Source: Hyphomicrobium sp.
GTDB lineage: Bacteria; Pseudomonadota; Alphaproteobacteria; Rhizobiales; Hyphomicrobiaceae
DNA length: 12,015 bases
Direction of reading: 5' to 3'
NCBI GenBank assembly: GCA_030598645.1
Contig: JAUVPN010000038.1
Location: forward strand, 1-12,015
Positions 2,182 through 12,015 of this stretch are shown in pieces. Below the pieces are notes generated by a model that saw nothing but the letters and a program-made list of their open reading frames with translations, made no database searches and was not told where the DNA came from. Within the stretch, counting starts at the first letter, position 1. Each line of letters opens with the position of its first letter. The position numbers and the translations under genes are program-made.

Positions 2182-3195
2182 TTAAAGCGCCACTTCCAGC
2201 GCCTCAATGAGTGCACGCAACTCATCATTTGGCGGACTGGAAAAGTGTAGACGCCTACCGCTGACAGGGTGCTCGAAACCTAGTTCACTGGCATGTAGGG
2301 CTTGGCGCCCTAGTTGCTTGAGTCTTTGTTGTGCCGTTTCGTTTAGAGTCTTGATGCTAGCCTTGAAGCCGCTACCGTAACTGGAATCTCCGAGTATGGG
2401 GTGTCCGCAGTGGGCAAGATGTACGCGGATCTGATGCGTGCGTCCGGTCTCTAGTTGCAATTTTAGAAGCGAAACCGGGCGGGCGCCGCTGGCACTTTCG
2501 AAAGTCTTGAGAACCTCGTAGTGCGTTACCGCGCGCCGCCCGGTTTCAGCCTTAGCCACCGCCATCTTAGTGCGATTGGTTGGGCTGCGTCGCAGAGGTG
2601 CATCGATGCTACCGCGCCGGTGCACGGGCGTTCCCCACACGAGCGCGAGATATGTGCGTTCCAGCCGTCCGTCCGCGCCGTGTGCCGCAAACTGTTCACT
2701 CAAACCCTGATGTGATGCGTCCGTTTTTGCTACTACGAGCAGCCCCGACGTCCCCTTGTCCAGGCGATGCACAATGCCTGGTCGCTTTACGCCGCCAATC
2801 CCGGACAGGCTTGCGCCGCAGTGGGCAATAAGCGCGTTGACGAGCGTACCCGAGGCATGACCCACCGCAGGATGCACTACGAGGTGGGCTGGCTTATCGA
2901 TAACGATGAGCTGATCATCCTCGTAGACGAGATTGAGCGCCATTTTTTCCGGTGCAGGCGTGGCCGGTTCAGGCTCGGGTACCGAGACGGTAAAGGTCTC
3001 GCCTGGTTTGACCCTGTGTGCTCCGTCTCTTATGGTCTCCGCCGCCTCGCTAGAGACGTTACCCGTACGGATCAGCGCTTGGATTCGCGCCCGGCTAAAC
3101 CCCTCGGTTCGCCCCGTCAGGAAGCGGTCCAAACGGGCCCCGGCGTCGTCTGGTCCTGCTGCTACCGTGACTAGATGTTCGCGAATTGCTGTCAT
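2182..3195 (-). CDS. rluD: Large-subunit rRNA pseudouridine synthase, RluD family
   Basis: A 337-residue RluA-family pseudouridine synthase. RluD isomerises uridines in helix 69 of 23S rRNA during large-subunit assembly. An N-terminal S4-type RNA-binding domain (ARLDRFLTG, FSRARIQALIRTGNV, about 20-47) precedes the catalytic domain (YEDDQLIVIDKPAHLVVHP, about 91-109). The signature HRLDKGTSGLLVVAK is at 143-157, with D146 as the expected catalytic aspartate. RTHQIRVHLAHCGHPILGD (252-270) is a further family motif. The frame is open upstream to 3423, but those 76 extra residues are low-complexity and basic and overlap the divergent gene. ATG at 3195 gives the usual MTAIREH-like start, with a weak GAGGG just upstream. 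The RluC or RluA subtype cannot be fully excluded, but the S4 domain and alphaproteobacterial context favour RluD. Confidence 0.9.
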   Translation of the reverse strand: MTAIREHLVTVAAGPDDAGARLDRFLTGRTEGFSRARIQALIRTGNVSSEAAETIRDGAHRVKPGETFTVSVPEPEPATPAPEKMALNLVYEDDQLIVIDKPAHLVVHPAVGHASGTLVNALIAHCGASLSGIGGVKRPGIVHRLDKGTSGLLVVAKTDASHQGLSEQFAAHGADGRLERTYLALVWGTPVHRRGSIDAPLRRSPTNRTKMAVAKAETGRRAVTHYEVLKTFESASGARPVSLLKLQLETGRTHQIRVHLAHCGHPILGDSSYGSGFKASIKTLNETAQQRLKQLGRQALHASELGFEHPVSGRRLHFSSPPNDELRALIEALEVAL

Positions 3196-3228
3196 CGCCC
3201 TCGCGCGGCCCTTGTAGGAGTGAGTTCT

Positions 3229-3624
3229 ATGCAAGCGTCCAGCAGCGTCGCCCCTGGCTCGCAACAATCTACGAGCGGTCCCATGCCTTCTGCTCAAAAT
3301 CCCAATGCGCGGTTGCAGAGTATCCTTAAACTCGTGGTCATTGCGCTGGGCATTTTGTTGGTAGCGGGACTGGCGATCGTGATCGGCCGCATTATCTATC
3401 TCGCGTCGGTGCCTTCTGCACAACCCGTAGCGTCTGCCATGGTAAGCTCAAATCAGACCCTGCAACTGCCACCGGGCTCGGAAGTACGCTCCGTCTCGCT
3501 TTCGGGCAATCAGATGGCCGTGTACTACGAGATGCCAGAAGGTTCCGGCATTGCCGTTCTCGATCTCGCTACGGGCCGGAAAGCAACGCACGTATCGATC
3601 GTGCCTGCACCCCCGCGCGACTGA
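3229..3624 (+). CDS. Single-pass membrane protein divergent from rluD (DUF6476-like)
   Basis: A 131-residue protein of unknown function. A Ser/Gln/Pro-rich N terminus (1-28) leads into one hydrophobic helix (about 32-57: ILKLVVIALGILLVAGLAIV and on), then a short domain (about 76-125) with LPPGSEVRSVSLSGNQMAVYY and IAVLDLATGR, which reads as beta strands. Lack of basic residues after the helix suggests the C-terminal part is periplasmic. ATG at 3229 is preferred because AGGAG sits 8 bases upstream; the frame extends to an ATG at 3175, but that start would overlap rluD. It lies only 33 bp from the rluD start, divergently. I recall small proteins of this type (DUF6476) next to rluD in alphaproteobacteria, but this assignment is from memory. 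Confidence 0.8.
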   Translation: MQASSSVAPGSQQSTSGPMPSAQNPNARLQSILKLVVIALGILLVAGLAIVIGRIIYLASVPSAQPVASAMVSSNQTLQLPPGSEVRSVSLSGNQMAVYYEMPEGSGIAVLDLATGRKATHVSIVPAPPRD

Positions 3625-3709: not shown

Positions 3710-3785
3710 GCCCCGTTCGTCTAGTGGCCTAGGACGCCAGCCTCTCACGTTGGTAACAGGGGTTCGAGTCCCCTACGGGGCGCCA
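3710..3785 (+). tRNA. tRNA-Glu (anticodon CTC)
   Basis: The 76-base cloverleaf is complete. The acceptor stem is GCCCCGT (3710-3716) with ACGGGGC (3775-3781), discriminator G at 3782 and an encoded CCA (3783-3785). The anticodon arm is CCAGC, CTCTCAC, GTTGG, giving anticodon CTC, which reads GAG. The T arm carries GGTTCGAGTCC. The layout closely follows bacterial tRNA-Glu. No obvious terminator follows. Confidence 0.95.
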
Positions 3786-4094
3786 CTTCTCCACTAAAAT
3801 GATTTCATATCATAGACTTAGCGAAGGTGGCACACCGCTTGGCTTGGAGAGTGGGACACTTATGTTTCATCTTTGGCCCTCACGGGCAGGGGTACTACGT
3901 TCGCTCCGAGCTTTCTATGATTGACGGCGAACGCTTATCTTTCTGTCTCCTTCAACGATTTACAACTGAACCAAGCGATAAGCCGGTGCGCGCTGGCGCC
4001 AGCTTCGACGAGTAACATAACGGCGGCCTTTGGAGAGGGTGAGCGGAAAAGTGCTCTAGCCCGGCCGCGTTAAACCCATTGGTGCATTTTGAGC

Positions 4095-4141
4095 AAAAGA
4101 AGGGCGCTGGCCCAACGGGAGTAGGTAGGTCCAGCGCCCTT
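4095..4141 (-). terminator. Strong minus-strand intrinsic terminator
   Basis: A perfect 11-bp stem AAGGGCGCTGG / CCAGCGCCCTT (4141-4131 with 4110-4100 on minus) and a 20-base loop are followed on minus by CTTTTGC. Together with the last two stem bases the tail reads TTCTTTT. On plus the stem is followed by AGTCTGCC, so it works as a terminator only on minus. No protein gene ends here, which implies a non-coding transcript. Confidence 0.55.
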
Positions 4142-4231
4142 AGTCTGCCACCATGCTCAGGGGGAGATGGCAATCTTCCGCAAGGGGGGAGCGGAAGGGT
4201 GGCGGCATCATAGGTAGGGAGGGTTCGCCGC
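4095..4231 (-). ncRNA. Candidate small RNA: four hairpins with C-rich loops
   Basis: Read on minus, four stem-loops follow each other with short spacers. SL1: GCGGC/GCCGC (4231-4227, 4206-4202), 20-base loop containing ACCCTCCCTACC. SL2: CTTCCGC/GCGGAAG (4197-4191, 4181-4175), loop TCCCCCCTT. SL3: TGCCATC/GGTGGCA (4172-4166, 4152-4146), loop TCCCCCTGAGCAT. SL4: an 11-bp stem (4141-4131, 4110-4100), then CTTTTGC. SL3 includes a G-U pair on minus that is an A-C mismatch on plus, which supports the minus strand. Each loop exposes a C-rich stretch able to pair with G-rich ribosome binding sites. This resembles the anti-Shine-Dalgarno hairpin RNAs of alphaproteobacteria (alpha-r14, CcsR, 'cuckoo' RNAs), a comparison from memory. 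The 5' end is uncertain: a TTGACC at 4238-4233 has no well-spaced -10. A structured element of a repeat is the alternative. Confidence 0.45.
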
Positions 4232-4401
4232 TGGTCAAGATCGTTTAGGTGTGAAGTTTTTTTTAGGATGCGCGATCGAGGAACACTGCTCGTTCCGACA
4301 GCCAACCCGAGCCTGCGCCGACCACAACTGACCTCGGGAACCCGAGATAGATCTAACCGGAAGCTGAGGGCTGCTGTGTCAGCCAAGTCTGGGGAGTGGA
4401 A

Positions 4402-4432
4402 CATGTCCGTTGTAACCTCGAAAGCGGACATG
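4402..4432. repeat. Degenerate hairpin repeat, copy 1 (MSALPPKAD type)
   Basis: CATGTCCG (4402-4409) and CGGACATG (4425-4432) are perfect 8-base inverted arms around a 15-base loop. In the ATG frame on plus it reads MSVVTSKADM. This is a variant of the MSALPPKADI peptide seen in many spurious ORFs of Bradyrhizobium-like genomes, a family recognised from memory. A related copy lies at 5832-5860. Confidence 0.45.
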
Positions 4433-4500
4433 CGATTACGCTGCTATTGGTTTAACGACGTTGAGACGCACAATCGCCCTGCCGTCATTGTTACGACTAC

Positions 4501-4800
4501 TTATTTATTCGCAAAAATATTCTGCGCTGGCCGGATATCGTACATGCGGTCCAACGTGCCATGATCCGACGGTTGTCTTTGGATCGAAAGTAGGAATTCA
4601 TCCACAAACGCGGAAGGGCTCACGTTGTCTTCTTCACCGCTAACTTTTGCTTTGGCTCGCATTGCTTCTAAGCCGGACGCCAAATTTTCCATGCAGACGA
4701 TGCGCGAAAAAATCATGTGCTTGATGTCGCCTCGCGGCCGGCAAACCTCGCCATATCCATTATGAACTTTGCCGTCGGGTTGAGCCGGGAAGTAGCGCAT
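4501..4800 (-). pseudogene. Out-of-frame C-terminal part of the cysteine-peptidase-like gene
   Basis: A 99-residue frame whose first part (DGKVHNGYGEVCRPRGDIKH, then MIFSRI) looks like the natural continuation of the gene at 4713-5516. I recall related secreted proteins ending in a W-x-S-N..GYG..VPRSDIKRMVFSRL-like segment. It is shifted by one base relative to the upstream frame, consistent with a single-base deletion near 4800. Restoring one base would give one ORF of 1017 bases (338 residues) from 5516 to 4501. The remainder (ENLASGLEAM to IRPAQNIFANK) is polar and helical-looking. The alternative is a separate overlapping gene starting at ATG 4800, which does have GGGAAG about 9 bases upstream. 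No good -1 slippery heptamer was seen. Confidence 0.45.
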
Positions 4801-5516
4801 CTCACGTCGCTTCCCACGCTTCGTCCGCCCTTGTTTCTGATTTCCCAGAAACGGATCATCTCTGTCCCTGCGGTCACCTTGCGGCCCGTGAACACAACCT
4901 GGTGTCCACGCTCAGATTTGCGCCGATTGACTCCGCCGCTCTTGAAATATTCAATTCCGACGTTTTCATTCCAAAAAATTTTCAGAAAATCGCCCGACCG
5001 CACATACGACAACGTATCATCGCGAAAGCTTATGCCAGTACCCGTATGTTTCAAAAAGGCAGCGCTACCTGCACCGTTAGCGTTGAAGATCCAGAACGGA
5101 CCTTGCCCATCCAGCATCGGGGTGCCGTCCGGCCGGGCTTTGACGGCTTGTAGCGCGCTAATTTGCTCAACGCTTAAGTTGATCTGTCCGCTGTTGTGCA
5201 AGCGCGAGACCAGATGCATATAGAGGGCGTAGGCCGCGCTTGTGCAATGGGATGGATGGCCATCGCGAACATGTAACCCTAAGCGGCCCCCGAGCTGGTG
5301 CACAGCTATGACCGGCAGCGCAACGCGGCTTCCTCTGACCTCGCAGCCGCCACCTTTGGGAAGGCTATCGATGATCTCAAGGATAATCGTATTGTAGTCT
5401 ATGTCTTTGCACGCAATGTTGCTTGGGGTGTTTGCGCTCGTACTTGATGAGAGCACCGCCAAGACGAGCAGCACCGTAAGCATTAGCTGCAAAGCTGATT
5501 TACCAATGATAGGCAT
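4713..5516 (-). CDS. Secreted cysteine-peptidase/amidase-like protein, probably frameshifted
   Basis: As read, 267 residues. Residues 1-28 form a signal peptide (K6, then hydrophobic LMLTVLLVLAVL, cleavage likely after STSA), so the product is exported. The body resembles NlpC/P60-like (papain-fold) proteins. C91 in GHPSHCTSAAYALYMHLV starts a helix as the nucleophile does, and GDFLKIFWN (175-183) with H205 in RGHQVVF fits the catalytic His strand. A third polar residue would lie further on, near FWEIRN. C36 and C58 could form a disulfide. The substrate is unknown; peptide or peptidoglycan cleavage is inference. The final 35 or so residues in this frame (from about SDVRCATSR) look unrelated to the fold, while the overlapping frame to 4501 continues it better. 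The start at 5516 gives a proper signal peptide but only a weak ribosome binding site. No partner gene is adjacent. Confidence 0.6.
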   Translation of the reverse strand: MPIIGKSALQLMLTVLLVLAVLSSSTSANTPSNIACKDIDYNTIILEIIDSLPKGGGCEVRGSRVALPVIAVHQLGGRLGLHVRDGHPSHCTSAAYALYMHLVSRLHNSGQINLSVEQISALQAVKARPDGTPMLDGQGPFWIFNANGAGSAAFLKHTGTGISFRDDTLSYVRSGDFLKIFWNENVGIEYFKSGGVNRRKSERGHQVVFTGRKVTAGTEMIRFWEIRNKGGRSVGSDVRCATSRLNPTAKFIMDMARFAGREATSST

Positions 5517-6716: not shown

Positions 6717-7994
6717 ATGATGTCATCGCTCGACGCCATGCCAGACGAATTGGGACGCCATCGTGCGCTTACGCAGCGAATTGAGGCGGCGGAAAGAGCG
6801 GCCCATGAGGGCGGGCGCACGCTGAAAATAGTCTTTGCAATCAAATCTATGAGCGTCCAAGGCGGTGGAGCTGAGCGTGTTCTTGCAGAAATCACCTCAG
6901 GATTGGCCGAGCGCGGCCACCAAATAACGTTGCTCACATTCGATCAACCAGGCACCCCTTCGTTTTATCCGCTTCATGGAAGGATTGCGCACCTGCAAAT
7001 TGGTGTAGGTGATTCACACCGGCCGGCTCGTCTATTCGAGACAGCGCGACGCATGGTGGCGATGCGGGAGCTCTTGCGCGGGATGGATCCCGACGCGGTG
7101 GTTGGGTTCATGCACAGCATGTTTATTCCCATGGGAATAGCGCTCTTCGGCACAGGTATTCCTCTTGTGGCCAGCGAACACATCGTGCCGGATCACTACA
7201 AGGCCCGCCCACTTCAAGCTTTACTACTACGGTTGATGCCGTGGATGACGCGCCGCATTACAGTGGTCTCAGATCAGGCACGGGCGGCCTACCCGGCAGC
7301 CTTGCGTGCTCTAATGACAGTTATGCCCAATCCAGTTTCGGTGCATTCCTCCGAGCCAGCAGACGTTGAGGGTGCGGCGCGTAGCCGGAAAACTCTCTTG
7401 GCAGTTGGTCGGCTTGCGTCTCAAAAGGATCATGCAACCCTTATCAGTGCGTTTGCTAGAATCGCCGAAAGATTGCCAGACTGGGATCTTCGGATCGTTG
7501 GTGAGGGCGAGATGCGCGGCGAGTTGGACGCCATGGTAGCGGCCTTGGGTCTTGATAAGCGAGTGCAAATGCCGGGAGCCATCAGGGATATATCGTCAGA
7601 GTACGCCTCAGCGCAGCTGTATGTAATTTCATCGCTTTACGAGAGCCAAGGCTTGGCGACGGCTGAAGCGCTTGCCCACGGTCTACCTGCCGTTGGCTTT
7701 GCCGACTGTCCCGGCACAAACAAGTTGATCCATAATGGTTGTGACGGAGTTCTGGTGAGGCCTAACGAAGATCGAGCGGACTCACTGGCTTCCGCGTTGG
7801 AGCCCCTGATGGGCGACCCCTGCGCACGGTTAAGCTTGGCACCCAAAGTCAAGAAGGCAGTTGAGCAACCTATCGTGGACTTATTCGACCTCTGGACCAA
7901 AATGCTGCATTCGGTCGCCGGCGGGTGCAGAACCTCTGCACTCTCTCAAAACGGACACGGCCCTGCGCAGGATCCGCGCTTCCAAAACATTTGA
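6717..7994 (+). CDS. GT4-family glycosyltransferase (GT-B fold)
   Basis: A 425-residue retaining glycosyltransferase of the GT4 family, which moves a sugar from an activated donor to a growing glycan at the cytoplasmic face of the membrane. The acceptor domain begins LKIVFAIKSMSVQGGGAERV (about 36-55), the glycine-rich loop typical of the family. The donor domain begins LLAVGRLASQKDH (about 227-239) and has PDWDLRIVGEGE (254-265). The E-x7-E motif ESQGLATAE is at 309-317, followed by GLPAVGFADCPG. The first 35 residues (helical, RIEAAERAAHEGGR) are an extension not seen in the two GT-B paralogues nearby. The start could be ATG 6717, 6720 or 6738; no clear ribosome binding site helps, and the frame is closed by a stop at 6648. 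The C-terminal end (from about 370) diverges from its paralogues. It converges with the gene ending at 8065. Confidence 0.88.
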   Translation: MMSSLDAMPDELGRHRALTQRIEAAERAAHEGGRTLKIVFAIKSMSVQGGGAERVLAEITSGLAERGHQITLLTFDQPGTPSFYPLHGRIAHLQIGVGDSHRPARLFETARRMVAMRELLRGMDPDAVVGFMHSMFIPMGIALFGTGIPLVASEHIVPDHYKARPLQALLLRLMPWMTRRITVVSDQARAAYPAALRALMTVMPNPVSVHSSEPADVEGAARSRKTLLAVGRLASQKDHATLISAFARIAERLPDWDLRIVGEGEMRGELDAMVAALGLDKRVQMPGAIRDISSEYASAQLYVISSLYESQGLATAEALAHGLPAVGFADCPGTNKLIHNGCDGVLVRPNEDRADSLASALEPLMGDPCARLSLAPKVKKAVEQPIVDLFDLWTKMLHSVAGGCRTSALSQNGHGPAQDPRFQNI

Positions 7995-8064
7995 GCTGGG
8001 CGCACCGGGACGCAGCTATCTCTAACTGGACAAGTCCCCCAGCAACGTGTCTTCGGCGAAAACA

Positions 8065-9255
8065 TCATTGGCTAGCTGCTGATCTGTTTCGCAGGACCCC
8101 TGGTGAACTGCCACTCTCAGGGGTCAAGCTTGCACCGGAGGCCGCAGAAGATATCACCTCACTTAAAACCTGTTCCCATTGGTCAATTATGCGATCGATG
8201 GCGAATGGTTGCACTCGGTTGCGTGCCGCTCGTCCCATGGCTTTGCGCAGGGGGGGATCTGAAAGAAGGACACTTAGCGCCTTGGCCAGAGTTACCTCGT
8301 TTCCATTGCCCTCAGCTAATAGGCCAGAATGGTCCGGTACAATCAGATCGCGCACGCCAGCGCAGTCAGCAAATCCGACTGCCGGTAACCCGTGTGCCAT
8401 AGCTTCTGCTAGAGCATTGGGAAATCCTTCCCAACGTGAGGGCAGGACGAAGCAGTGCGCTCCGGCGTAACTTTGGTCGAGCGATTTTCTAACGCCGACT
8501 AAGGATATTCGACCAGAAAGATCGTGTTCTGCGATAAGCGCTGTCAGTTTGATCCGGTCCTCGCCGTCTCCGACGATTGTCAAGTCCCAATCAGGAAAGG
8601 TTCGCGCCAACCGCGCAAAGGACTTAATGAGTACGTCGTAATTTTTCTGATAACTAAGCCGACCCACAGACAGCAGTGTGTATCTCCGTGTTGATGTTGG
8701 CCTGTGGGGGCGGGACCGGTTCACCGCTGGGGCAACAGGGTTCGGGATGGTGACAATACGATTTCGCAAGAACCCAGGGTAGTGCGAGCGATAGCTTTCA
8801 CATTGCACGATCACCCGGCGGGCCAAACGGAAACTCTGATAGATGAGGTTTCTCTGCCTACCCGCGCTAGTGTGGTCGAAGCGTGTGGGTGCGTTTCGTT
8901 CGGCCGCAAGAAATGGGACTCTTAGTCCGAGCGCGTACAGTCGAAGGCTGATAAAGGGACCATCTTGGAAACAAATGACAGCATGAGGCTTGCTGCGCGC
9001 CATTATCTGTCGAATAGCCTTCGCGCGCCGAATTTTCTGGAGGACACCAGCTTTATCACGTGGGTCCCCGTGGTTTAGACGTCGCCAGATTATCTCGGGA
9101 GCCATTGAATAGAAAGAAGTAGCCTTTGCTTGGTCCCAAGTGAAGAATTCTACGTGATGGCCACGCGCTACCAACGAATTCATGATCGTCACGACCATAC
9201 GCTCGACGCCCCCCGCCACATTGTCAATGGCACGCGCTGCAAACATAATTCTCAT
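8065..9255 (-). CDS. GT4-family glycosyltransferase (GT-B fold)
   Basis: A 396-residue GT-B enzyme, last in the visible minus-strand operon. The N-terminal domain starts MRIMFAARAIDNVAGGVERM, with the glycine-rich acceptor loop. The donor domain starts LLSVGRLSYQKNYDVLIKSF (194-213), then PDWDLTIVGDGED (221-233) and the E-x7-E motif EGFPNALAE (276-284), followed by GLPAVGFADCAG. The motif strings are shared with the plus-strand gene at 6717 and with the upstream gene at 11173, so the three are paralogues. Its ATG overlaps the upstream stop (ATGA, 9252-9255), with GGAGG 9 bases before the start inside the upstream gene. The C-terminal 25 residues are Ser/Gly-rich and probably disordered. Donor and acceptor cannot be predicted. 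No terminator was clear in the 70-bp convergent gap. Confidence 0.9.
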   Translation of the reverse strand: MRIMFAARAIDNVAGGVERMVVTIMNSLVARGHHVEFFTWDQAKATSFYSMAPEIIWRRLNHGDPRDKAGVLQKIRRAKAIRQIMARSKPHAVICFQDGPFISLRLYALGLRVPFLAAERNAPTRFDHTSAGRQRNLIYQSFRLARRVIVQCESYRSHYPGFLRNRIVTIPNPVAPAVNRSRPHRPTSTRRYTLLSVGRLSYQKNYDVLIKSFARLARTFPDWDLTIVGDGEDRIKLTALIAEHDLSGRISLVGVRKSLDQSYAGAHCFVLPSRWEGFPNALAEAMAHGLPAVGFADCAGVRDLIVPDHSGLLAEGNGNEVTLAKALSVLLSDPPLRKAMGRAARNRVQPFAIDRIIDQWEQVLSEVISSAASGASLTPESGSSPGVLRNRSAASQ

Positions 9256-10211
9256 GCCCGCAGCCTCCGGCGCATATTTATTTCATGAAGAATACGCTTT
9301 GGGGCTGTGCTCAGAAGGTGACTGGAAACCACAATCGGGTTACGCAGCATCAACAGCAGTGCGTCGACAAAGACCATGTCGTACCGTCGCTTGAAATGCC
9401 AGTAGCGTAGGCGTGGCCAACGCCAAGCGTATTCATAGCGACCTACTGAGCGCAGGTAGTCAGCGTGTTTAGTGGCAAGGAGTTGTTCTGCTTCTAGGTT
9501 CTTCTCAGGCGTTTTATCGAGAGCGTTAGTGGCATGCTGAGTGAGAAGTGCCGCACCAGTTCCCACGAAATGTGCCCCTCGAAGTGCAAGTCGAATTGCA
9601 AAGTCGACATCCTCAACCCGTCGGAGAGCAGGGTCAAAGTCTCCGACCTTGGCGAAGGTACTTCGGCGAGCCATCAATGCACATGCCGGTACTCCAGAAC
9701 CGTAGTTCCAATTGGGATTGCGTCGATAAAATAGCAGCCAATCCGCAACGCCAGGGCCACTTGGAACACGGATACAGTTCGCCCCTATGGCAGGTAACGG
9801 TTTGACGTAGCCGTTAGGATACCGTCGCTCTCCCGACGCGTAGCACGCGACTAGGCTTTGCCCCGTTCTATCTTCATATGAGGTCAAAGTTCGGAGCTGC
9901 TCGGCAAGCCTGTCTGGTGAACTCTCGTCGTCGTCATCGAATAGGGAAATAAACTCGCCTCGAGATTGAAGTAGAATAGTGTTGCGCGTCCCTGCAGGCC
10001 CAGTGTTCTTCGCGTGACGGACAAGGCGAGCTCGTTCGTCCGTCGCTATCCGCTTTTCTATAATATGCGCGGTTCTGTCAGTTGACGCATCGTCAACAAT
10101 AATCACCTCAAGATTGGGCCAGTGTTGTGCCAAGCAGGAGTCAATTGCGCGTTCAACCGTGTCTTGGGCATTGAAGCATGGGAGCCCTATTGTAATAAGT
10201 GGCGCGTTCAT
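9252..10211 (-). CDS. GT2-family glycosyltransferase (GT-A fold)
   Basis: A 319-residue inverting glycosyltransferase of the GT2 family. It opens with ITIGLPCFNAQDTVERAIDS and EVIIVDDASTDRT (35-47), the nucleotide-binding part. The metal-binding D-x-D site is in FDDDDE (91-96). VEDVDFAIRLALRGAHF (199-215) supplies the acidic ED motif usual for the catalytic base in GT2 enzymes. The C terminus is basic and aromatic (YAWRWPRLRYWHFKRRYD, about 261-278), with one hydrophobic stretch (MVFVDALLLML), suggesting membrane association. It shares this layout with the enzyme encoded just upstream, a probable tandem duplicate. It starts at an ATGA overlap with that gene (10208-10211) and ends at an ATGA overlap with the next. 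The product is likely one glycosidic bond of a surface glycan repeat; the sugar is unknown. Confidence 0.9.
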   Translation of the reverse strand: MNAPLITIGLPCFNAQDTVERAIDSCLAQHWPNLEVIIVDDASTDRTAHIIEKRIATDERARLVRHAKNTGPAGTRNTILLQSRGEFISLFDDDDESSPDRLAEQLRTLTSYEDRTGQSLVACYASGERRYPNGYVKPLPAIGANCIRVPSGPGVADWLLFYRRNPNWNYGSGVPACALMARRSTFAKVGDFDPALRRVEDVDFAIRLALRGAHFVGTGAALLTQHATNALDKTPEKNLEAEQLLATKHADYLRSVGRYEYAWRWPRLRYWHFKRRYDMVFVDALLLMLRNPIVVSSHLLSTAPKRILHEINMRRRLRA

Positions 10212-11176
10212 AGCGAGAGTTCCGGTTCTTTATGAAACTTCCGCAAAGACCTGTTGTGCGCGGCATGGCGGCGGGACGATAAAAATCGTTCCAAGGAGTA
10301 AATCGGATGCTGAAGCATCAGGAATGCAAAGGTGAAGGCCACGTCATGCCGTCCTTCGAGCCAGGCATATTTTCCCTCGATCCATCTGCGACAGAAAGCT
10401 AGCTGGCTATTGCTCTCAAAGAGATCGCGATGCTTCTCTAAGAGCATCAGAGCATATCGACACTCTTCTGAGAGTTGCTTTTCCGAAGAGTGCGTCATCG
10501 TCTGATTTACGAGTGGTTCTGCGATCCCGACAAAGTGAGCTCCCGCTCTTCCGAGCCTCACATTGAATTCAGTGTCCTCGCTTCTGCGAAAGTGCGTATC
10601 GAAACCTCCAAGAGCCTTGTATGTCGACAGCCTAGACATTTGCGAGCAGGTTGCACAGGCGCCGACAGAACTACCTAAGGATTTTCCAAAAAGTATGTAA
10701 TGAGCGACGTCGAGGCCGTTCGGCGCTAAACAATCAGATTGCTCGCCCATCGTCGGAAGGACCTCTACACGCCCGTCCGCAAATGTTTGTCGCCGAGCCG
10801 TATGGCAGACGATAGGCGCCCCACCGCCAAACTTTCTCTCATACTGAGTGATGCGAGCTATCTGACAAGCTAACCGTTGGGGCTCACTTACGTCGTCATC
10901 GTCAAAGAAGGCAACAAAATCGCCCCTTGCCGAGTCCAGGATGCGGTTGCGACTTGACGCTACGCCGAGATTCCGCTCATTCCTAAGCACATAAACATCG
11001 GGGAACTTATTCTGAAGCGTTTCTAGGACTGCAGGACTCTCGTCAGACGAACAGTCGTCGACGATAATAATTTCAATTGGCCGCCAAGTCTGAGCAAGGG
11101 CTGAGCGAACCGCCCGCTCTATCGTAGTTGAAGCGTTGAAGGACGTGATGCCACAAGTCACAAGAGTCGTTTTCAT
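10208..11176 (-). CDS. GT2-family glycosyltransferase (GT-A fold), tandem paralogue
   Basis: A 322-residue GT2 enzyme. LVTCGITSFNASTTIERAVR and EIIIVDDCSSDES (35-47) form the nucleotide site, FFDDDD (90-95) carries the D-x-D, and RRSEDTEFNVRLGRAGAHFVG (197-217; E200-D201) carries the catalytic acidic pair. Alignable motifs and the same basic C terminus make it a close paralogue of the gene at 9252. An in-frame ATG exists at 11218, but ATG 11176 is preferred. It starts MKTTLVTCGI, which matches the family N terminus, and it forms the same 4-base ATGA overlap with the upstream stop (11173-11176) as the other junctions. It is rich in cysteine (10 residues), more than its neighbour. Its role is presumably addition of a sugar adjacent to that added by its partner. 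Confidence 0.9.
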   Translation of the reverse strand: MKTTLVTCGITSFNASTTIERAVRSALAQTWRPIEIIIVDDCSSDESPAVLETLQNKFPDVYVLRNERNLGVASSRNRILDSARGDFVAFFDDDDVSEPQRLACQIARITQYERKFGGGAPIVCHTARRQTFADGRVEVLPTMGEQSDCLAPNGLDVAHYILFGKSLGSSVGACATCSQMSRLSTYKALGGFDTHFRRSEDTEFNVRLGRAGAHFVGIAEPLVNQTMTHSSEKQLSEECRYALMLLEKHRDLFESNSQLAFCRRWIEGKYAWLEGRHDVAFTFAFLMLQHPIYSLERFLSSRRHAAHNRSLRKFHKEPELSL

Positions 11177-12015
11177 ATCTTTCGGCCATTTGCAACACCC
11201 TCGATCAGTGTCGCCCATCTCTGAAATTGCTCTTCAGGTTCGTACTTGCGCATTTCTCGAGCGGCGAGCGCTCCACGGCGACGGCGCTCCTCGCCATCCG
11301 ACATCGCTTGATGAAGTGTGCAGGCAAGTGCGTCAATCTCGTTCCCGCGGTCTGCAAGCCAGCCAGTTGATCCGTGGCTAATGAGCTGTGCCACACCTTC
11401 GGCGTTCCTAAATCCGACTGCGGGAAGTCCCGCGCTTAGTGCCTCGGCCAAGGCATTTGGAAACCCCTCCCATCGTGACGGCATAACAAACAGGTTCGCC
11501 TTCCCATAGGCATCGTGAATGCATTTGGTCGGGACCTCAAAGGCGACCCGAGCCTCGAGCGCAAAGCTTGAGACCAATTTTCGGAGGGCCGGTTCATCCT
11601 GTCCTTCACCGATAATTTTAAGGTCCCAGTTGGGCATCAAAGGTGCAATGCGGCTAAAGGCGTGAATAAGGCAATCGAGACGCTTCTGAAGTTCGTCGAG
11701 GCGGCTTACGGCCAGCACCTGATAGCGTCCATCTTTGTTGGGAAATTCAGGCCGGGCGATGGCTTGAGGAGGACTAACGGGGTTGGCAATGCAGGTCATG
11801 CGCTTTTGCAACCAACTGGGATAGCCTTCAACATAGTCCGGGAACTGAACTGTGATCGCATCGCAAAGATATAGGAGCGCAAATCTGAGCCAGCGCTGCC
11901 CGCTTCCGCAACGAAAGCGATACATCGACGGTCCGTTGCGTTCGGCAGCGACGAGGCGCACGCCCGTAATCTGCGATGCGGCGTACACGGTCTTGTCACC
12001 ACTCATTACAAAGCC
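11173..12015 (-). CDS. GT4-family glycosyltransferase, 5' end beyond the window
   Basis: The frame stays open to base 12015, so the N-terminal acceptor part is missing; an ATG at 12006 lies within the coding region (preceded by G-F-V) and is not the likely start. Counting from that Met, the visible part has ITGVRLVAAERNGPS (13-27), the donor domain YQVLAVSRLDELQKRLDCLI (95-114), PNWDLKIIGEGQ (125-136) and the E-x7-E motif EGFPNALAE (180-188), followed by GLPAVGF. It resembles the gene at 8065 most in this stretch (SRWEGFPNALAEA in both). GT-B enzymes thus bracket two GT-A enzymes in the operon. The stop overlaps the next start (ATGA). Further operon genes probably lie beyond the window edge. 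Confidence 0.88.
   Translation of the reverse strand, partial: GFVMSGDKTVYAASQITGVRLVAAERNGPSMYRFRCGSGQRWLRFALLYLCDAITVQFPDYVEGYPSWLQKRMTCIANPVSPPQAIARPEFPNKDGRYQVLAVSRLDELQKRLDCLIHAFSRIAPLMPNWDLKIIGEGQDEPALRKLVSSFALEARVAFEVPTKCIHDAYGKANLFVMPSRWEGFPNALAEALSAGLPAVGFRNAEGVAQLISHGSTGWLADRGNEIDALACTLHQAMSDGEERRRRGALAAREMRKYEPEEQFQRWATLIEGVANGRKI

What the first reader, a model, noticed from the sequence alone, without database searches (positions are those of the whole stretch)
4095..4231. Four tandem hairpins with C-rich loops: candidate anti-Shine-Dalgarno small RNA
Seen: on minus, stems of 5, 7, 7 and 11 bp in about 137 bases. Loops include ACCCTCCCTACC, TCCCCCCTT, TCCCCCTGAG and ACCTACCTACTCCCG, and the last stem has a U-rich tail. 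A G-U pair that works only on minus sets the strand. Known: alphaproteobacterial alpha-r14/CcsR 'cuckoo' RNAs carry CCUCC-type loops that bind G-rich ribosome binding sites or a regulator. Inference: this is a relative or a new member with four loops; I see no DUF1127-type small ORF upstream, as CcsR RNAs have.
Basis: partly seen in the sequence, partly recalled or inferred. Interest (0 to 1): 0.7.

Follow-up and report, generated by a model that had tools for sequence, protein, structure and literature searches.

The report
Multicopy C-rich-loop small RNA family
The window holds one copy of a family of small RNAs, repeated several times in the genomes of some Hyphomicrobium-like bacteria, whose C-rich loops look made to cover ribosome-binding sites on messenger RNAs, and some of whose copies carry a promoter site of the kind read by low-oxygen regulators.

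Summary
The RNA is most likely about 112 nt, minus strand 4206-4095: an outer stem closing a three-way junction with two C-rich hairpins, then a terminator-like hairpin with a C-rich loop. The core folds 5.9 sd below shuffles. A covariance model found 22 copies (E<=0.01) in 4 of 8 genomes of the nearest genus, 2-7 per genome. In 25 aligned members 25 of 28 pairs change on both sides (alignment fitted to the model). Eight relatives carry an FNR/FixK-type box 38-41 nt upstream (7 perfect, 1 with one mismatch); the window's copy has none. Loop complements are commoner at ribosome-binding sites than at control positions in a 400-kb sample. It works like the alphaproteobacterial anti-Shine-Dalgarno RNAs (alpha-r14, CcsR, cuckoo) but fails their membership tests: Rfam 19.2 and 12.1 bits against cut-offs 58.8 and 65.3, no CCUCCUCCC. 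New variant of a known kind. No expression data; mechanism inferred.

The parts
4095..4206 (-). small RNA core (about 112 nt; predicted 5' end near 4206, 3' end in the U tail)
   Evidence: R2 match 90.7 bits (the window is one of the 13 training rows); MFE z -5.9; 5' end inferred from the position of FNR/FixK boxes in relatives
4200..4206 (-). outer stem, 5' arm (the family model pairs GCCAC with GUGGC, a register slipped by 3 nt from the window's MFE)
   Evidence: MFE; all 5 pairs of helix 1 have changes on both sides among 25 members (fitted alignment)
4175..4197 (-). hairpin A, 7 bp, loop UCCCCCCUU (4182-4190)
   Evidence: MFE; helix 2
4154..4172 (-). hairpin B, loop UCUCCCCC
   Evidence: MFE; helix 3, the weakest of the four (66.7% of cells paired, 83.3%)
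4147..4153 (-). outer stem, 3' arm
4100..4141 (-). terminator hairpin, 11-bp main stem, loop with ACCUACCUACUCCCG
   Evidence: helix 4; the only helix found by RNAalifold on A2
4095..4099 (-). U-rich tail (CUUUU)
   Evidence: sequence
4233..4238 (-). TTGACC, sigma-70 -35-like hexamer, 32 nt upstream of the core; at the same place (31-32 nt) in L161 and L167
   Evidence: sequence; no promoter passed the scan; TATGAT at 4207-4212 is 20 nt away, too far for the usual spacing
   Evidence: folds; its 3' arm overlaps the outer stem; not part of the family model

Best explanation
It is one copy of a multicopy family of intergenic, trans-acting small RNAs of a Hyphomicrobium-like alphaproteobacterial genus. 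Each copy is transcribed from its own promoter, folds into a three-way junction carrying two C-rich loops plus a terminator hairpin with a third C-rich loop, and ends at a run of U. The loops (UCCCUC, UUUCCCCC, CUCCCCCC types) pair with G-rich Shine-Dalgarno regions (GGGAG, GGGGA, GGAGG) of several mRNAs and block ribosome binding. Different copies have different promoters, so that several conditions feed the same kind of repressor: about a quarter have an FNR/FixK-type site where such a regulator activates transcription; the window's copy instead has a sigma-70-like -35 hexamer. Shown by sequence: structure, family, copy number, box position. Inferred: transcription, target pairing, translational block, low-oxygen control.
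For: Fold z -5.9. Single-sequence model R1 found 13 matches at E<=0.01 in 4 of 103 family genomes. R2 (window plus 12 of these; L147 dropped because it aligned badly) found 22 at E<=0.01 in 4 of 8 genus genomes: G438 7, G435 7, G434 6, G433 2; 10 of the 22 were not in training, one of them being the dropped L147. On an alignment not fitted to the structure 83.4% of cells pair against at most 50.1% when partners are slid, with 9 of 28 pairs changed on both sides; on the fitted alignment 89.8% against at most 51.3%, 25 of 28 pairs. Topology: 21 of 30 cores against 56 of 1740 shuffles. FNR/FixK box TTGAYNNNNRTCAA centred -38 to -41: 6 perfect and 1 with one mismatch among the 28 genus matches (one of the 28 has no upstream DNA); 0 of 20,000 random-anchor draws over 27 of them reach 6 (mean 0.03, largest 2). 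One perfect box (L177) among the 21 matches outside the genus, looked at afterwards; 78 of 20,000 draws reach 1. Complements of 6 nt or more to the six loops tried: 10-16 of 177 predicted ribosome-binding regions against 1-5 of 177 at two control positions. No ORF of 30 aa or more lies on the minus strand between the RNA and the opposite-strand tRNA-Glu apart from one that overlaps the RNA itself (3952-4431, no Pfam match), which speaks against a cis leader.
Against: No expression data. The window's own genome is not held, so its copy number and targets were not seen. The window's copy lacks the box (0 matches with up to 1 mismatch in 12 kb) and no sigma-70 promoter passed the scan. In one search the letter-shuffling control is close (81.1% paired when shuffled, 83.4% observed; 9 two-sided pairs against 5.6, reached by 30 of 500; further pair types reached by 129 of 500). 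9 of 30 cores do not fold into the topology. C runs are not universal: 51 of 77 MFE loops of 25 members fit my C-run patterns; L169 and L171 have none, and L153, L167 and L172 lack one in the terminator loop. The enrichment at ribosome-binding sites is not special to these loops: the alpha-r14-type motif gave 11 against 3 and 2, and with 5-nt complements the contrast is weaker; start codons were predicted crudely. The box motif was noticed on the copies on which it was first counted; only L177 is held out, and L153 is a weak model match (E 0.026). Boxes are not that rare in the flanks of the copies (6 perfect in 61,826 positions). Distribution is narrow: 6 of 397 order genomes at E<=0.003, two of which (G657, G717) do not show the fold.
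Confidence: 0.6

Rival explanations
1. A small RNA of the same family that works by binding or titrating a protein (a C-rich-binding or RNA-turnover protein) or by sponging other RNAs, not by covering ribosome-binding sites.
For: Loops are short and repeated within each molecule, as in protein-titrating RNAs; no target was shown; one copy lies 135 nt from a PNPase gene.
Against: Loops are complementary to local G-rich ribosome-binding sequences; for alpha-r14/NfeR1 loops of this kind are reported to repress ntrB by base pairing (PMC10746234, passages seen).
Confidence: 0.2
2. A dispersed palindromic repeat (REP/BIME-like) or mobile element without function as an RNA.
For: Several copies per genome; three copies lie within about 1.1 kb of tRNA genes (window, L161, L167), which are frequent integration sites. 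Besides the RNA, L169/L172 share 249 nt and L153/L168 share 464 nt of flank.
Against: 2-7 copies per genome at E<=0.01, mean pairwise identity 0.60, compensated stems, fixed spacing to the box in eight copies. Other long shared flanks are one orthologous locus pair (L148/L155) and one duplicated locus (L150/L156). None of the window ORFs scanned matched an integrase or transposase family (Pfam; PHROGs on four ORFs).
Confidence: 0.08
3. A CsrB/RsmZ-like RNA on the plus strand with G-rich loops.
For: On the plus strand the loops read GGGA/GGGGGG; the terminator palindrome also gives R2 a weak plus-strand match (17 bits).
Against: The plus strand folds worse (z -3.1); U tails and the boxes fit the minus strand; G-U cells outnumber A-C cells 29 to 18 (weak, since A3 is partly misaligned).
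Confidence: 0.03
4. A true alpha-r14/CcsR (cuckoo) member that Rfam models miss because stems diverge.
For: Same kind of make-up (C-rich-loop hairpin modules, several copies per genome; PMC3927594 section 2.7, read); of the bacterial families matched at this place in the lax search alpha-r14 scores best.
Against: CCUCCUCCC absent; scores 19.2 and 12.1, far below the cut-offs; outer stem and three-way junction; 20 loci of relatives reached no Rfam cut-off except tRNA.
Confidence: 0.12

Closest known systems
alpha-r14 / NfeR1 (RF02344)
   Same: Alphaproteobacterial sRNA of similar length (123 nt) with three C-rich, anti-Shine-Dalgarno-type loops and variable stems (PMC10746234, passages seen).
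   Different: 19.2 bits against 58.8; loops UCCCUC/CCCCC instead of CCUCCUCCC; outer stem makes a three-way junction; several copies with unlike promoters, some with FNR/FixK boxes.
CcsR1-4 of Rhodobacter (RF02791)
   Same: Several homologous C-rich-motif RNAs in one genome.
   Different: CcsR1-4 are processed from one RpoHI/HII transcript with a DUF1127 gene (PMC10253847, passages seen); here single copies at scattered places, no DUF1127 ORF seen at the window's copy, 12.1 bits against 65.3.
SmelA075/SmelA099 and the cuckoo RNA family
   Same: Modules of C-rich-loop hairpins, several copies per genome, variable stems (PMC3927594 section 2.7, read). The cuckoo paper itself is not held; its '2 to 4 hairpins' definition is recalled.
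   Different: Loop motif CCUCCUCCC not met; nested junction; FNR/FixK-type promoters on part of the copies.
FnrS and other FNR-dependent sRNAs (recalled, nothing read)
   Same: sRNA genes with an FNR-type box near -41.5.
   Different: No relation of sequence was looked for; FnrS is single-copy and of another fold (recalled).

Membership tests
alpha-r14 (RF02344) | covariance score at or above the curated cut-off | tested here: not met
   19.2 bits, cut-off 58.8; 0 of 103 family genomes over the cut-off
alpha-r14 (RF02344) | three hairpins with identical CCUCCUCCC loops | tested here: not met
   no CCTCCTCCC in the window; loops of 25 members
alpha-r14 (RF02344) | base pairing of loops with ribosome-binding sites of target mRNAs | not testable with these tools
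   only bulk complementarity to 177 predicted ribosome-binding regions of two relatives
CcsR (RF02791) | covariance score at or above the cut-off | tested here: not met
   12.1 bits, cut-off 65.3
CcsR (RF02791) | co-transcription with a DUF1127 gene | tested here: not met
   Pfam: no DUF1127 in minus-strand ORFs of 30 aa or more at 3952-5516; in 24 relatives only a six-frame motif scan without positive control, negative
CcsR (RF02791) | RpoHI/RpoHII promoter | not tested
   -
cuckoo family | 2-4 adjacent C-rich-loop hairpins (definition partly recalled) | tested here: met
   three C-rich loops in the window's core
cuckoo family | CCUCCUCCC in each loop | tested here: not met
FNR/FixK-controlled sRNA | TTGAY-N4-RTCAA centred near -40 of the RNA start | tested here: not met
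   not met for the window's copy; met perfectly by 7 relatives and with one mismatch by 1
REP/BIME-type repeat | many near-identical copies | tested here: not met
   2-7 copies per genome at E<=0.01, mean identity 0.60

The most novel reading that the evidence does not exclude
Up to seven or more paralogous anti-Shine-Dalgarno RNAs per genome form a distributed translation brake: the RNA body is kept constant while promoters are rewired, and part of the set is switched on by an FNR/FixK regulator at low oxygen or NO, so that oxygen limitation lowers translation of mRNAs with GGGGAG-type ribosome-binding sites.
Probability: 0.3. Interest if true: 0.75.

Novelty: new variant of a known kind. Interest (0 to 1): 0.52.

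Why it matters
It extends the anti-Shine-Dalgarno RNAs of Alphaproteobacteria to a fold and loop motif that Rfam's models do not reach, and it ties part of the family to an FNR/FixK-type site at a fixed distance, which gives a directly testable condition (low oxygen) for RNAs of this kind. The literature searches showed me no paper on FNR/FixK-controlled anti-Shine-Dalgarno RNA families in this group; I saw capped listings and passages or one section of three papers, in an open-access library only, so this is weak evidence of absence.

Tried and rejected
Synteny: the RluA-tRNA-Glu neighbourhood is conserved (tRNA-Glu in 18 of 20 fetched regions), but no C-rich hairpin cluster with a U tail was seen in the 20 (one tail-less cluster in L112 lies about 0.5 kb from the tRNA on the RluA side). 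My descriptor is strict (it found only two hairpins of the window's RNA, without the terminator), and in L124 the contig ends at the tRNA. blastn and nhmmer with the window's RNA hit none of the 74 loci then held. So the copy does not look like a conserved neighbour of rluA. Plasmids: no match.

Alpha-r14 model over 103 family genomes: 32 with sub-threshold matches at E<=0.1, none over the cut-off. Of the 30 loci kept, many look by eye like other C-rich-loop RNAs, some like GC-rich repeats or chance. Kept as a side observation.

Integrative island: tRNA-Glu beside the window's copy, a prophage record with an integrase beside the same tRNA in L002, tRNA-Arg near L161 and tRNA-Pro near L167; no integrase among the window ORFs scanned. 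Whether tRNA genes are commoner near copies than by chance was not tested.

Other promoter motifs in the copies without a box: looked at by eye, nothing firm.

Rows dropped: the ten weaker R1 hits (E 0.09-0.84) were not used; seven were folded and looked unlike the family, three (L133, L140, L141) were not looked at. L147 was left out of R2 training. L159 (E 0.0988) was left out by oversight and checked: no box, no topology.

Full report
Where the window lies. It encodes an RpoH-like sigma factor (857-1762 -), an RluA-type pseudouridine synthase (2182-3195 -), a DUF6476-like protein (3175-3624 +, below that family's cut-off), tRNA-Glu(CTC) (3710-3785 +) and a row of glycosyltransferases (6717-12006). 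Of the 120 RluA relatives listed, the three with an organism name are Hyphomicrobium sp. at 66-67% identity. The nearest of the held genomes that I searched, G433, has 68%; G433's own RluA is 75-95% identical to 51 listed proteins, and the four with an organism name are again Hyphomicrobium sp.. The host is therefore a Hyphomicrobium-like alphaproteobacterium; its genome is not held.

The observation. The minus strand of 4085-4240 folds at -60.9 kcal/mol, 5.9 sd below 200 shuffles, none as good. The core 4206-4095 alone gives -51.6, z -5.9; the plus strand z -3.1. In the core the best fold is not a row of hairpins but an outer stem holding hairpins A and B, followed by the terminator hairpin.

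No known family. Rfam at curated cut-offs finds only the tRNA. With a lax threshold, alpha-r14 gives 19.2 bits (cut-off 58.8, E 0.5) and CcsR1 12.1 (cut-off 65.3, E 9). Twenty loci of relatives give only tRNAs at the cut-offs.

Finding relatives. A model of the window's stretch alone (R1) was run over 103 genomes of the family: 23 matches at E<=1 in 12 genomes, 13 of them at E<=0.01 in four genomes (G438 5, G435 5, G434 2, G433 1). Most of these 13 show the nested architecture. R2 was built from the window and 12 of the 13. In the eight genomes of the genus R2 gave 28 matches at E<=0.1 in six genomes, 22 at E<=0.01 in four (7, 7, 6, 2); two genomes had none and two only weak ones. In the family, 25 of 103 genomes had a match at E<=0.05 under stricter filters. 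Of the 21 matches outside the genus, L177 (G415) and L176 (G404) have the nested fold; several others look like different C-rich-loop RNAs and some like chance (by eye). In the order, 6 of 397 genomes had a match at E<=0.003, of which G657 and G717 lack the fold. So, at this sensitivity, the family is mainly one of this genus.

Structure evidence. On the MAFFT alignment of 13 (A3), not fitted to the structure, 83.4% of cells pair against 39.7-50.1% for slid partners. The letter-shuffling control is much closer: 81.1% paired (1 of 500 as high), 9 two-sided pairs against 5.6 (30 of 500), covariation score 0.210 against 0.163 (2 of 500), further pair types 25 against 23.3 (129 of 500). Hairpin B is the weakest (66.7%), partly because the rows slip there. 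On the 25-row alignment made by the model (A4), 89.8% pair, 25 of 28 pairs change on both sides, and no shuffle reaches any of the five measures; this alignment leans to the structure. Folding each core on its own avoids that: 21 of 29 give the topology, against 56 of 1740 shuffles; with L159, which I had left out, 21 of 30. RNAalifold on the first alignment (A2) found only the terminator helix.

Gene family rather than repeat. Identity between the 25 members is 0.40-0.96, mean 0.60. L148 and L155 are orthologous loci in G438 and G435 (89% over 2.3 kb) between phasin and Hsp20 genes; L150/L156 are a duplicated locus in G434; L153 and L168, both with a box, share a flanking gene (71% over 464 nt), so they may be one locus in two species. 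Ten neighbouring ORFs from nine loci were scanned: besides phasin and Hsp20 they are PNPase, OmpW, CBS-BON, a histidine kinase, a membrane-fusion protein, PP2C, MerR and DNA polymerase I. The window's only blastn relative among 24 is L161; the match covers 4238-4093, i.e. from TTGACC to the tail.

Promoters. Six of the 28 genus matches have a perfect TTGAYNNNNRTCAA centred 38-41 nt before the core, and L171 one with a single mismatch (L174 has no upstream DNA). That consensus and the -41.5 position are those I recall for FNR/FixK-type activators. Random anchors in the same loci give 0.03 perfect boxes per draw, at most 2 in 20,000 draws. Among the 21 matches outside the genus, examined afterwards, L177 has a perfect box at -40; 78 of 20,000 draws do as well. 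Background: 3 perfect boxes in 416,026 bases of family loci, some counted twice, and 6 in 61,826 positions of the copies' own flanks. L148 and L155 have a perfect box further off, at -102 and -98. In an alignment of L149, L160, L163 and L154 nearly all of L154's box sits in a 19-nt stretch absent from the others, as if promoters were rewired around a constant RNA. The window's copy has no box; it shares TTGACC at -32 with L161 and L167, and no promoter passed the scan. Of the 30 alpha-r14-model loci none has a perfect box near its start; one (L091) has a one-mismatch box.

Mechanism. In 400 kb of G433 and G434, 177 predicted start codons were taken. GGGAG occurs in 13 upstream 20-mers against 2 and 2 at two control positions, GGGGA 12 against 2 and 2, GGAGG 9 against 2 and 3. 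Complements of 6 nt or more to the window's loops: hairpin A 16 against 4 and 3, hairpin B 12 against 5 and 3, terminator 10 against 2 and 1; the alpha-r14 motif 11 against 3 and 2. The loops thus suit the ribosome-binding sites of the genus, but no better than the classical motif. With the reported action of NfeR1 on ntrB (PMC10746234, passages), occlusion of ribosome-binding sites is the most likely mechanism. Target identity and regulation remain inferred.

Verdict. It is best filed as a new variant of the anti-Shine-Dalgarno RNAs: a nested, multicopy family with partly FNR/FixK-type promoters.

Noticed in passing
L178, L179, L181, L184, L086 (around the match; alignment A7): A second C-rich-loop RNA family in five genomes of the same bacterial family: loops AGTGCCCCCCGTCT and TTCCCTCCC are invariant while stems vary, with a C-rich terminator loop; no FNR/FixK box found.
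   Followed up: partly
L085, L087, L091, L093, L096, L097; L088/L187 (one locus) and L189: Further groups of C-rich-loop multi-hairpin RNAs with terminator-like ends in the same bacterial family; such RNAs seem numerous there.
   Followed up: no
window 3710-3785; L002 1024-3728: The tRNA-Glu beside rluA is probably a phage integration site: in L002 (a virus record) an integrase gene (Phage_integrase) lies within 2.7 kb of the same tRNA, on the side away from rluA.
   Followed up: partly
L138 1740-2009, L147 375-1190: ORF translations with the words FWHLADI / FGTKSVPA, which I recall as dispersed intergenic repeats of Hyphomicrobiales; near two RNA copies.
   Followed up: no
L149, L160, L163 upstream of the core (alignment A6): Conserved upstream sequence (about 75-95 nt in blastn) with GTGTGGCA and GTGTCGCAAT; a promoter of another kind, not identified.
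   Followed up: no
window 4713-5516 (-): 267-aa ORF with a signal-like N-terminus and no Pfam or PHROGs match, between the RNA and the glycosyltransferase genes.
   Followed up: partly
L089, L095, L098 around the match: Long GC-rich hairpins sharing GAGCGAAGCCGCCGG arms in three genomes; look like a dispersed palindromic repeat that the alpha-r14 model picks up.
   Followed up: no
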